Shown: positions 54,719 through 60,749 of the stretch, in pieces
Layout of the letters: every line of letters starts with the position of its first letter
Position numbering within the stretch: position 1 is the stretch's first letter
Translations under genes and position numbers: made by a program
Notes under the pieces: generated by a model
The model's input: only the letters and a program-made list of their open reading frames with translations
Databases searched by the model: none
Told to the model about the DNA's origin: nothing
From: Verrucomicrobiia bacterium
Lineage (GTDB): Bacteria; Verrucomicrobiota; Verrucomicrobiia; Verrucomicrobiales; DEV007
Reading direction: 5' to 3'
Assembly: GCA_030425385.1 (NCBI GenBank)
Contig: JAUIAH010000008.1
Location: forward strand, 142,153-206,152
Length of the DNA stretch: 64,000 nt

Positions 54719-57238
54719 CTATTCCGGCGCTGAGGCTGCTGTGAGGACGCGGATTCGGTAGAAAGGGCCAGTGTCGCGTGTGGTGGTGATCGTGCTGGTC
54801 GGACCCTCGGCCTCCCATTCGTCTACAGGTCCCCACATTGGCTCAGCATTGAGGGTGCCACTTTCTAACACATAGCGCAATCCAGCGACGCTTTCCCATG
54901 TGATACTCACGCTCTCACCTTGAATCTCAATCACACGGATGTGGAGCCGCGATTGAGGATTGTTCGGATCCGTAGCAGCGAGAAATTCGTCCTGGTTTGA
55001 TAATCCATCGTTGTCTTTGTCCAAGGCGGCATCACTCGGATCCATGGGATCGAGCTGATGCCTCTCCTCCCACTCCGTGGGCAAGCCATCGCCGTCTGGA
55101 TCTGGGTCCGCGGGTGGGATGGCTTCGAAGAGCGCTTCCAAGGTGAGATCTCCAGTGAGTGCCACGGTGGTGAGCGCATCGGCAGGCACCATCACCGCAT
55201 CGATCGCGTCACCCTGCCATTGCACGAAACGAAAGCCTTCCTCGGGAAGCGCACGGATGGTCGTGGGCACCGATTCATCGACCACCCCTCCTCCTTCTAC
55301 TTGTCCGCCAGACGCTGCAATGAGCGTGAGCTCCCACACTTTCACAAACCTGGCTTCCAAGGTGAGATCATTCTGCACACGCACTTCGAGCACGGGCGAG
55401 GTAGGATCCCGTTCACCCAGTTCCCCCACCCAACCGCCAAAGCGATAGCCTTCGGCTGGCATGGCCGTGAGTCTTGCCGTGCTGCCTGCATCAAGCGTCC
55501 CCGCACCCTCAGCCGTACCGCCTTCTTGGGCCTCCAGGACGATGGCCCACACTTTCACAAAGGTCGCTTGAAGAGTGACCTCTCCGGTAACAGCCGCCAC
55601 CTCAGTCACCGCGCTGGTGGGATCCGTGATTCCTTCGCCTATCCAAGAGTCAAATCGGAATCCGTCGTCTGGAATGGCGGTCACGGGTATGGTGCTCCCT
55701 TCGTCCACGACGCCACCGCCTTCCACCCTTCCACCTTCACCAGCCTCCAATCCGACCCGCCACACCTTGACGAAGTTCGCCTCGATCGTGGTGTCTTCTG
55801 TTAGCGTAACCTGCGTTTGGAGGGCATCGACATCGGCCACAGGCCCGGTCCACCCACCAAAGCGATAGCCTTCCTCGGGCGTCGCGATGACAGTGGTTTC
55901 CATGCCCTCATCAAAGATGCCCGAACCTTCTACGGATCCACCTTCACTTCCAGTTACGGTGAGGTTCCATACTTTGACGAAGTTCGCCTCTATGGTGACG
56001 TCTTCTGTTAGCGTGACCTGCGTTTGGAGGGCATCGACATCGGCCACAGGCCCGGTCCACCCACCAAAGCGGTAGCCTTCCTCAGGCGTCGCCGTGAGCG
56101 TGACTTGAGATTCACTGTCATAAAGGCCAGCACCGTCGACAGAACCGCCTTCACTCACCGAAATACTCAATTTCCACACGCGGACGAAGTTGGCCGTCGC
56201 GGTGGTGTCCCCTGACAGTGTCACTGATGTTGTGGGTTCCAGTGGCGCCACGATCCCATCTCCTTCCCAGCGATCAAAGCGGAATCCAGGGTCGGGCGTA
56301 GCGTTGATGGCTACGATCGTTCCCCTATCAAACACACCACCTCCCGCAACGGTGCCACCAGCACGCGCAGAGACCATGAGCGTGCTGATAGGGACGAAGA
56401 TTGCTGTAATGTTAGAATCAGCAGTCGCAAGCAAAGTCGTCTCTGGGCTCATCGGAGAGGCGACGTCCCCACCCGACCAGCGATCAAAGCGGAAGCCTGT
56501 ATTTGCCGTGGCAACGAGCGCTACTTCCGCGCCGTCGTCGACCAAGCCAATCGTGTTCACCATTCCCCCATCAACAGGCATGGCCGTGGTGGTGATGTCC
56601 ACTTGTGGCGTGGAAGACTGCGGGCCGACCACTGAATCAATGATCGATCTGACAGTGCTGGCCTGGCCAGATGAGAAATTGTTAGAAACGTAGAGGACCT
56701 TCCATTGCTCCGGGCCTGCTTGCCCATCCAGGATGACGAAACGCCGTCGAACCGAAGAGCCAAGTTGACTGGGCGAGCGGGAAGCCGGCTCTCCCGAGTA
56801 GTAGGAAAAGCCATTTCGGATACTCGTGCGTATGCCGCCTTCCTCAACAAGATCCAAAGCCGCCTCGAATCCAATGTTTCCAGCGAAGCTCGACACACTG
56901 CTATCGAAACCATCGGCCTCGATGCCGAGCACCACGTAGCGGATAGGCACGCCTTGATCATTGCGTCCTTGGTTCTCACCTCGGCTGGCAGCATTATAGA
57001 AATCCGTAATCGAGTCGCCGAACTGGCGACCAGCAGTGCCTCAGATCGGTCACCACGGCGTGTAATAGTAGAGGACCACGATATTTCCCGCGTAGTCCGT
57101 GAGCTGCGTGTTCGTTAGACCTCCCTCGAGGGTGGCAAACGCCACATTCTTGGAAAGGGTGCCGACAGGCAATTCTTGTGCGAGAGCCAGCGACGTGAGT
57201 CCAAGCGAGAGAACAATGGGAGCAAGAGCTATTCTCAT
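54719..57238 (-). CDS. probable secreted U-x-x-U selenoprotein: thioredoxin-like domain plus InlB-type repeats
   Basis: ATG 57238 opens a signal peptide (MRIALAPIVLSLGLTSLALA) and a thioredoxin-like domain with NIVVLYYYTPW at residues 52-62. Codons 63 and 66 are TGA (57052-57050 and 57043-57041), exactly where the redox motif W-C-x-x-C should have its cysteines. The frame then stays open to 54719. Read as selenocysteine, the motif is W-U-P-I-U-G and the protein is 839 aa. Residues about 25-205 are thioredoxin-like, about 210-715 are seven InlB-type B-repeats (GYRFGGWTG, EANFVKVW), then a calcium-type motif (DPDGDGLPTEWEE) and a beta-rich end. A fitting SECIS-like hairpin follows the second TGA. 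A disabled gene is the alternative; two nonsense changes at precisely both cysteines would be a striking coincidence. Confidence 0.8.
55767..56092 (-). repeat. near-identical adjacent InlB-repeat units (207-bp period)
   Basis: Bases 55767-55885 and 55974-56092 are nearly identical, 207 bp (69 codons) apart, and encode repeat units 3 and 4 of the selenoprotein. The other units are much more diverged, so this pair reflects a recent duplication or gene conversion and could change copy number by slippage. Confidence 0.8.
57013..57031 (-). promoter_or_regulatory. candidate bacterial SECIS hairpin
   Basis: On the mRNA strand GGTCGCC (57031-57025) pairs with GGCGACT (57019-57013), giving 6 Watson-Crick pairs plus a G-U, around the loop AGTTC (57024-57020). 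The loop begins 16 nt after the second TGA and 25 nt after the first. It has a G in its second position. These values meet the bacterial SECIS criteria as I remember them (16-37 nt, G among the first two loop bases). Confidence 0.7.
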
Positions 57239-59605: not shown

Positions 59606-60640
59606 TCAAGCCACTGGCCGCCTATTTCTCAAATCAACCAACCCACGCCAGCCGGCCATTCCCGCCGTCTTCACGGAGCGCGCCCCGCGTTCGCGTTTCA
59701 CCTGCATCTGCTCTCGATGCCGCGCAAACACCTCCTCAACAAACGCCTCACTCCCTAACGCTAGACTATCACTGAAATAGCGCACCCGAACCCGCACGAC
59801 TTGCGCCACGTTCAATTGCCCCCCTTGACGCTCCACCTTTGCCACCGCTTCCCCAGGCATCCCTGCGCGGCGTTTCCCGCCCTCTTCAGTGACTGCAGCT
59901 TGTTCCTCCCCGACACCATACAGATAACGCCGATACTGTGCCTGGCAGGAGCGCCACTGATGCCCACTTCCATGCTCAATGCCTAACACCCGCATCAACC
60001 CACGCCGCCGCGCTTTATTCCCCGCCACCGCCTCCCCATAGCTACTCCAGCGATAATCCTTCGGATCTTTCACAATCCCCGCCCGCACAGGATTGAGATC
60101 GATGTAAGTAGCCATTGTCAACAACACCGTCTCGTCATTCTCTAGCAACACACTCTTAAACCGATCCTCCCAAAGCGGTCCCTTTCGCTGAACCTTCTTG
60201 TTATACCACTGCGTAAAGCGCTGCTTCAATTCCTTCACAAACATCGACAAGTCGGCCATCCGATTCAGAAAGCGCTGGCGATACTCGAGGTAGCCCTTCT
60301 CGGGTGACTGCTCCTTCAAGCGCGCCAACATCTGCCGCACCCCGATCAGTTGCTCTTCTGAAGTTGTCACCAAAGCCAAGCGCCGCAGCAACTCCGCATC
60401 ATCAATGGCCGCGCGATGTTCCTCCGCGTTCGGCACCTCGATCAGCAAGTGCACATGGTTCGACATGATGCAAAAGCAAAGCAGCTCGACCCCGGCGAAC
60501 CCGCACTGAATCTCCAAGAATTCCCGAAACTTCTCCTTCACCGGCCCTTCCAGGAGGAATCGTCCCTCAAGGATCCGTGACATCACATGGTAATAATTGG
60601 CCGCCGCTCCCGGCTCCCCTAAAATTCTAACCGATCTCAT
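59606..60640 (-). CDS. REP-associated tyrosine transposase (RAYT, IS200-like)
   Basis: From ATG 60640 (MRSVRILGEPG) the protein is 344 aa; the TTG at 60712 would translate part of the adjacent repeat and is unlikely. The Y1-transposase motifs are present: YYHVMSRILEGRFLL, the metal-binding H-x-H in SNHVHLLIEVPN, and the catalytic tyrosine in FTQWYNKK. PLWEDRFKSVLLEN and TYIDLNPVRAGIV are RAYT-typical. These single-copy enzymes nick and move short REP-like palindromes rather than themselves. A 32-bp tandem repeat lies directly upstream. Confidence 0.9.
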   Translation of the reverse strand: MRSVRILGEPGAAANYYHVMSRILEGRFLLEGPVKEKFREFLEIQCGFAGVELLCFCIMSNHVHLLIEVPNAEEHRAAIDDAELLRRLALVTTSEEQLIGVRQMLARLKEQSPEKGYLEYRQRFLNRMADLSMFVKELKQRFTQWYNKKVQRKGPLWEDRFKSVLLENDETVLLTMATYIDLNPVRAGIVKDPKDYRWSSYGEAVAGNKARRRGLMRVLGIEHGSGHQWRSCQAQYRRYLYGVGEEQAAVTEEGGKRRAGMPGEAVAKVERQGGQLNVAQVVRVRVRYFSDSLALGSEAFVEEVFARHREQMQVKRERGARSVKTAGMAGWRGLVDLRNRRPVA

Positions 60641-60670
60641 CGCACCACCCTTCGCTCCAAGCCCCACCAC

Positions 60671-60749
60671 CGTCAACCTTTTAATGGTCAAACCCTTAAA
60701 ATCCTCTACCAAGGGCGCGTCAACCTTATAATGATCGCACCCTTATTAT
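60671..60749. repeat. two 32-bp repeats upstream of the RAYT gene
   Basis: Bases 60671-60702 and 60718-60749 share CGTCAACCTT-x-TAATG, and both then carry an ACCCTTA word, so each unit contains the motif ACC(C)TTxTAATx twice. They are 47 bp apart and 30 bp from the transposase start. Possible end sequence or REP-like substrate of the RAYT. Confidence 0.65.

What the first reader, a model, noticed from the sequence alone, without database searches (positions are those of the whole stretch)
54719..57238. Secreted selenoprotein with two TGA codons at both cysteines of a thioredoxin-like W-C-x-x-C motif
Seen: the minus-strand frame from ATG 57238 is open to 54719 except for TGA at codons 63 and 66. 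These fall exactly after TPW, where thioredoxin-like domains carry C-x-x-C, so the motif becomes U-P-I-U. TGA is an ordinary stop elsewhere in this window (many ATGA overlaps), so general recoding is excluded. Known: U-x-x-U diselenide motifs exist in the SelL family of aquatic organisms, as I recall. Inference: an 839-aa exported selenoprotein that automatic annotation would break into a 62-aa peptide and a headless repeat protein.
Basis: partly seen in the sequence, partly recalled or inferred. Interest (0 to 1): 0.95.

Follow-up and report, generated by a model that had tools for sequence, protein, structure and literature searches.

The report
Exported diselenide thioredoxin-like selenoprotein
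This bacterial gene has UGA codons at both active-site positions of a predicted thioredoxin-like domain, nearly all relatives examined have UGA or cysteine codons at the same two places, and the genome carries the selenocysteine genes, so the gene likely makes an exported protein whose two neighbouring selenocysteines would form a rare selenium-selenium bond.

Summary
Confirmed and strengthened. The minus-strand frame 57238-54719 is open except for TGA at codons 63 and 66, the two Cys positions of a domain modelled as a ResA/AhpE-like thioredoxin fold (pLDDT 91.8). The genome has tRNA-Sec, SelA, SelB and SelD over cut-off.

The gene belongs to a family: I found 18 UxxU and 12 UxxC loci, plus CxxC forms, always at these two positions; near-identical orthologues differ U versus C. 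Codons on both sides of the TGAs are under purifying selection. A hairpin just downstream covaries in 26 Sec loci (84.0% paired; 0 of 500 shuffles) but not in 17 Cys loci (38.2%). In the window it lies 25 and 16 nt from the two UGAs, within published SECIS limits for both; in many relatives it is weak.

UxxU thioredoxin-like selenoproteins are known (SelL; Prx-like PF00578). This family passed no Pfam or NCBIfam cut-off in the members tested, and its cis-Pro position is not Pro in any of 29 Sec rows, Arg in 25. Sec insertion, export and the diselenide are inferred, not tested at the bench.

The parts
54719..57238 (-). Whole predicted selenoprotein gene, 839 codons plus TAG
57176..57238 (-). 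Predicted signal peptide, residues 1-21 (read by eye from the sequence; no signal-peptide program was run)
   Evidence: low pLDDT for residues 1-20
56618..57175 (-). Predicted thioredoxin-fold domain, residues 22-207
57050..57052 (-). UGA codon 63, first predicted Sec
57041..57043 (-). UGA codon 66, second predicted Sec
57013..57031 (-). SECIS-like hairpin, 7 bp, loop AGUUC, 25 nt after UGA 63 and 16 nt after UGA 66
56744..56749 (-). Codons of Arg164-Arg165, Arg164 standing at the aligned cis-Pro position
55139..56596 (-). InlB-like repeats (PF18998, seven matched stretches; outer limits approximate, about residues 215-700)
54956..55021 (-). Weak TSP3-like match, residues 740-761 (20 bits, below the cut-off of 25)

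Best explanation
The gene reads as one 839-codon frame with UGA at both Cys positions of a predicted thioredoxin-fold domain, and these two UGAs are most likely decoded as selenocysteine by the genome's SelA/SelB/SelD/tRNA-Sec, giving a predicted exported protein with a Sec-x-x-Sec active site that would cycle between diselenol and diselenide. Shown by sequence: the two UGAs, their conservation or exchange with Cys in relatives, purifying selection on both sides, a covarying hairpin downstream, and genes of the whole Sec pathway. Inferred: one SECIS hairpin serves both UGAs, since it lies within the accepted distance of each. Inferred: a signal peptide sends the protein across the inner membrane, the domain acts as a thiol:disulfide or peroxide-reducing oxidoreductase in the envelope, and the InlB-like repeats display it at the cell surface. 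Inferred: electrons could come from the one DsbD-like protein found. The diselenide would guard the selenium against over-oxidation outside the cytoplasm.
For: Frame and TGAs. TGA an ordinary stop: 18 of 42 ORFs. Machinery: tRNA-Sec 65.1 bits (cut-off 47) and ARAGORN SeC; SelB 283.4 bits; SelA 490.6 bits; SelD 361.2 bits with one in-frame TGA. Family: 18 UxxU and 12 UxxC loci; near-identical orthologues UPTC in G544 and CPTC in G540 and G666. Selection: window against L019, pN 0.252 and pS 0.745 over 141 codons after the second TGA. Hairpin: A5, 26 Sec loci, 84.0% of cells paired against 59.5% in shuffles, 42 cells with double changes against 16.1, covariation 0.663 against 0.209, each reached by 0 of 500 shuffles; Cys set A6, 17 loci, 38.2% paired and RNAalifold predicts no stem. 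Loop A and G invariant in 26 of 26; in L086 the Gln codon CAG became GAG (Glu), which keeps them. SelA over cut-off in 19 of 20 genomes with a Sec form and 6 of 22 with only non-TGA matches. Fold. DsbD-like protein.
Against: No protein evidence. With a strict contiguous stem, 8 of 17 Sec loci had a hairpin at or below -4 kcal/mol, 3 of 17 at or below -7.5, and 3 of 17 had none; 3 of 5 Cys loci in the same scan also had one at or below -4 (L036, L037, L044); of 3539 background codons 9.7% had one and 6.0% had one that could serve two codons 9 nt apart. The wider 131-nt stretch is not unusually stable (z -0.72, 43 of 200 shuffles as good; the hairpin is in the MFE but not the centroid fold). The outermost pair fails in 12 of 26 loci. 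SelA association is not free of kinship: of 5 independent pairs about 2 agree, 0 disagree, 3 do not differ. tRNA-Sec was under cut-off in G051 and G052. G050 copies are decayed and L020 has an in-frame TAG. Substrate, reductant and location are untested.
Confidence: 0.87

Rival explanations
1. Decaying gene: the two TGAs are ordinary stop mutations and only the headless part, if anything, is made.
For: TGA is a normal stop here. In G050 a related copy is visibly broken, with TAG and TAA as well.
Against: The same two codons are TGA in 18 loci over three genera and two families; purifying selection on both sides; the hairpin covaries only in the TGA forms.
Confidence: 0.02
2. Only one UGA is decoded well: the protein is mostly a one-Sec enzyme, and the other UGA truncates it when selenium is low.
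For: 12 UxxC loci show that one Sec suffices in some relatives; the second UGA is 16 nt from the loop, the lower limit of the published range. Two Sec insertions in a row are expected to be inefficient (recalled).
Against: UxxU is kept in 18 loci, which suggests selection for both; 16 nt is still within range.
Confidence: 0.15
3. It is a bacterial member of SelL, the aquatic UxxU diselenide family, rather than a separate family.
For: Same UxxU motif in a Trx-like fold; SelL is reported from fish, invertebrates and marine bacteria (PMC2397514, passage).
Against: Not comparable here. The nearest Cys relatives that carry a source's name are Verrucomicrobial TlpA-type proteins.
Confidence: 0.12
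4. The Sec pair binds a metal or metalloid rather than cycling as a diselenide.
For: Copper-binding Sco1 structures are among the structural matches, and the Pro that in thioredoxins is said to hinder metal binding (recalled) is replaced.
Against: ResA, DsbE and AhpE match as well as Sco1; four neighbouring window genes given to Pfam showed no metal-related family.
Confidence: 0.1

Closest known systems
Selenoprotein L (SelL)
   Same: A diselenide in a redox motif, in fish, invertebrates and marine bacteria (PMC2397514, passage and reference title); UxxU in a Trx-like fold (recalled)
   Different: This protein is predicted to be exported and is fused to InlB-like repeats; homology to SelL could not be tested (SelL paper not held)
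Prx-like thiol:disulfide oxidoreductase selenoproteins (PF00578; UxxC, UxxU) and GOS Prx-like 2 (UxxU)
   Same: Trx/Prx-type domain with UxxC and UxxU forms (PMC13188914, PMC9312934, PMC2398784, passages)
   Different: None of 6 members tested reaches the PF00578 cut-off (window 25.2 bits against 26; the CxxC paralogue L030 has 36.5), and PF04592, tied to Prx-like 2, is not listed for them at E up to 1
ResA / TlpA / CcmG (DsbE) thiol:disulfide oxidoreductases
   Same: Predicted fold and active-site place; some nearest relatives are named TlpA family
   Different: UGA for Cys; cis-Pro position is Arg; InlB-like repeats follow
UGC-containing TlpA family selenoprotein
   Same: TlpA-like selenoprotein (PMC13188914, table passage)
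   Different: Motif UGC with one Sec, not UxxU

Membership tests
Bacterial selenoprotein | In-frame UGA aligned with Cys of homologues | tested here: met
Bacterial selenoprotein | SelA, SelB, SelD and tRNA-Sec in the genome | tested here: met
Bacterial selenoprotein | SECIS hairpin: loop 3-9 nt, stem 4-16 bp, G in first two loop positions (mostly then G or U), 16-37 nt from UGA, MFE at most -7.5 kcal/mol | tested here: met
   window: 7 bp, loop AGUUC, 25 and 16 nt, -11.1 kcal/mol (limits from PMC13188914 passage). Only 3 of 17 Sec loci reach -7.5 with a contiguous stem
Bacterial selenoprotein | Selenium shown in the protein | not testable with these tools
   needs mass spectrometry
ResA/TlpA-type thioredoxin fold | Fold with the active-site motif at the start of the first long helix | tested here: met
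   model helix 64-82 follows W62-U63; structural matches
ResA/TlpA-type thioredoxin fold | cis-Pro before the strand that faces the active site | tested here: not met
   by alignment: Arg 25, Ser 3, Ala 1 of 29 Sec rows; Pro in 9 of 15 Cys rows
AhpC-TSA (PF00578) selenoproteins | Passes the PF00578 cut-off | tested here: not met
   25.2 bits against 26 for the window domain
SelL | UxxU motif | tested here: met
SelL | Sequence homology to SelL | not testable with these tools
   no SelL sequence at hand
SelL | Diselenide bond | not testable with these tools
   needs chemistry

The most novel reading that the evidence does not exclude
Verrucomicrobiota have their own Sec-dominant family of envelope enzymes in which an extracytoplasmic diselenide replaces the thioredoxin disulfide, the near-universal cis-Pro is exchanged for an Arg that tunes the selenolates, one SECIS hairpin decodes two UGAs 9 nt apart, and some copies are displayed on InlB-like repeat stalks at the cell surface.
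Probability: 0.5. Interest if true: 0.78.

Novelty: new variant of a known kind. Interest (0 to 1): 0.66.

Why it matters
Two-Sec active sites are rare and hardly studied in bacteria. Here is a natural series of UxxU, UxxC and CxxC forms, down to near-identical orthologues that differ at one position, so the worth of one or two selenium atoms could be measured directly. The family also makes testable whether a single bacterial SECIS can decode two UGAs, and how an extracytoplasmic diselenide is reduced. It is also a clear case of systematic mis-annotation: the protein collection searched holds headless pieces of these genes.

Tried and rejected
Pseudogene and general recoding were tested and rejected. 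Viral contigs: no relative by tblastn. Synteny: of 12 window ORFs compared with five stretches around relatives, only the selenoprotein itself and, at 27% identity, the PQQ protein matched, so no operon partner was found. The tRNA-Sec model separated genomes poorly, as other tRNAs also score, so SelA was used for the comparison. The strict hairpin scan loses stems with a mismatch, so the alignment-wide count is the main evidence. A5 holds 26 of the 30 Sec loci: L041, L068, L046 and L069 were left out as another branch; L041 and L068 have a hairpin with loop GGUC at 23 nt, L046 and L069 none by that rule. A6 holds 17 Cys loci; not used were L036 and L037 (close copies of L077 and L078) and L042, L043, L049, L052, L054, L057, L058. 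In one search my script wrote L024 and L027 twice (46 rows, 44 distinct). L025 is in A5 but not in the tree. Of the 22 genomes counted as non-TGA I saw no CxxC motif in G106, G525 and G656, and only the 7-8 best candidates per genome were scored. Literature: searches listed nothing on this family in Verrucomicrobiota; the library is open-access only, and I read passages, no whole paper.

Full report
Observation. The minus-strand frame from ATG 57238 to TAG 54719 has 839 codons and two in-frame TGAs, at codons 63 and 66, in Y-T-P-W-U-P-I-U. TGA ends 18 of the 42 non-overlapping ORFs of at least 200 aa picked, so it is an ordinary stop. The protein collection holds a headless 743-aa version from a contig of the same length as the window's own. 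In alignment A1 all nine relatives (35-65% identity to the window domain) have TGA at the first position, and seven of the nine have it at the second too; the other two, L028 and L031, have Cys there.

Machinery. The genome (G000, 8.0 Mb, 95.5% complete) has tRNA-Sec (65.1 bits; ARAGORN tRNA-SeC), SelB (283.4 bits), SelA (490.6 bits) and SelD (361.2 bits), each over its curated cut-off. SelD has one in-frame TGA, in ...TCGUAAK....

Family. Of 74 genomes of the same family 4 matched, all of one genus. Of 384 genomes of the class 77 matched at E up to 0.001, many by short stretches only. Of 386 genomes of the order 28 matched at E up to 1e-8. By motif I count 18 UxxU loci: window, L019, L022, L025 (decayed), L023, L024, L027, L029, L020 (one in-frame TAG), L026 in the window's genus; L040, L082, L084, L085, L086, L087, L092, L094 in a second family. 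UxxC loci are 12: L028, L031, L079, L081, L088, L093, L095, L098 in the same clade, and L041, L068, L046, L069 in another. CxxC forms inside the clade are L039, L077, L078, L080, L083. L081 (UPTC, G544) and L077, L078 (CPTC, G540, G666) are near-identical orthologues. A metagenome relative, P0004, has Trp where the first Sec stands in its kin.

Tree. The core family is one side of a branch with support 100/100 (32 rows, 30 distinct), apart from the other TlpA-like relatives; on the whole tree at least 6 changes between having Sec and not are needed (rooted at the midpoint for drawing only). Named relatives are Verrucomicrobial (Verrucomicrobiaceae bacterium TMED86; Limisphaerales and Puniceicoccales), so I infer that the window is from Verrucomicrobiota; no name was given for its genome.

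Selection. Window against L019: over 141 codons after the second TGA pN is 0.252 and pS 0.745; over 40 codons before the first, 0.134 and 0.725. Window against L022: 0.266 and 0.775 after, 0.257 and 0.715 before. Synonymous sites are near saturation, so only the contrast counts.

SECIS. In the window a 7-bp stem with loop AGUUC (57031-57013) has -11.1 kcal/mol and lies 25 nt after UGA 63 and 16 nt after UGA 66. Published limits are loop 3-9 nt, stem 4-16 bp, G in the first two loop positions, 16-37 nt, MFE at most -7.5 (PMC13188914, passage). Across 26 Sec loci the stem pairs in 84.0% of cells (shuffles 59.5%), with 42 double-changed cells (16.1) and covariation 0.663 (0.209); 0 of 500 shuffles reach any of these three, while the number of pairs with a double change is not unusual (236 of 500). 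Slid versions pair at most 54.5%. The outermost pair fails in 12 of 26. In 17 Cys loci pairing is 38.2% (37 of 500 shuffles as high) and RNAalifold predicts no stem. The loop A and G are invariant in all 26 Sec loci; the Cys loci share them in 2 of 17. The Gln codon over the loop is CAG in all 25 rows with Gln, against 55% CAG in 15 window ORFs (rows are related, so this is no test), and L086 changed Gln to Glu with the AG kept. This points to selection on the RNA.

Results against the hairpin. Under a strict contiguous-stem scan 8 of 17 Sec loci had a hairpin at or below -4 kcal/mol, 3 of 17 at or below -7.5 (window, L022, L025) and 3 of 17 none (L028, L046, L069). In the same scan 3 of 5 Cys loci (L036, L037, L044) had one at or below -4. 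Of 3539 background codons 41.6% had some core hairpin, 9.7% one at or below -4, and 6.0% one that could serve two codons 9 nt apart. A 131-nt stretch around the UGAs is not unusually stable: z -0.72, 43 of 200 shuffles as good; the hairpin is in its MFE fold but not in the centroid.

Association with the pathway. SelA is over cut-off in 19 of 20 genomes with a Sec form (the miss, G690, is 72% complete) and in 6 of 22 genomes with non-TGA matches only; Fisher p 6.4e-6. In the first 20 genomes SelB gave the same 11 as SelA. Kinship is not removed: of 5 independent pairs about 2 agree, none disagree, 3 do not differ, too few for a test. tRNA-Sec stayed under cut-off in the fragmented G051 and G052, and was over it in some genomes without SelA.

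Known and new. UxxU selenoproteins are in print: SelL with a diselenide (PMC2397514, passage), PF00578 Prx-like UxxC/UxxU (PMC13188914 and PMC9312934, passages), several UxxU sequences in GOS Prx-like 2 (PMC2398784, passage), UxxU SelW (PMC7539508, passage). Searches listed no description of this family in Verrucomicrobiota, within an open-access library. I therefore call it a new variant of a known kind. Odds: 0.87 that both UGAs encode Sec in a working exported protein as described in outline; the enzymatic role is less sure.

Noticed in passing
G000:C35:15743-17394 (L073): Two further UxxU paralogues (both U-S-T-U) lie in tandem in the same genome.
   Followed up: partly
G050:C57 (L025, L021) and G050:C417 (L028): One species of the genus keeps SelA and SelB, but its copies look decayed: TAG, TAA and a frame break in one, no recognisable start in the other.
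   Followed up: partly
P0004: A metagenome relative has Trp (W-W-S-E-C) where the first Sec stands in its closest relatives; TGG is one base from TGA. Sequencing error, loss or something else is open.
   Followed up: no
L044 (G193) and L041, L068 (G352): Within one genus L041 and L068 are U-P-V-C with a GGUC-loop hairpin, while L044 is C-S-I-C and still has such a hairpin (-8.0 kcal/mol), as if Sec had been replaced by Cys recently.
   Followed up: partly
window 59606-60712: A Y1/IS200-like transposase gene (PF01797) lies two genes away from the selenoprotein.
   Followed up: no
G000:C41 around 75455 (L009): Beside tRNA-Sec are a pyridine-nucleotide oxidoreductase-like and a glycosyltransferase-like gene that resemble selenium-associated genes (by recall, not tested).
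   Followed up: no
P0092-P0098, P0100, P0103, P0104, P0106-P0110: Headless metagenome proteins with A-S-R-Y or A-A-R-Y before V-I-I-N-G resemble the UxxC group of G169 and may be further mis-annotated selenoproteins; several have immunoglobulin-like domains.
   Followed up: no
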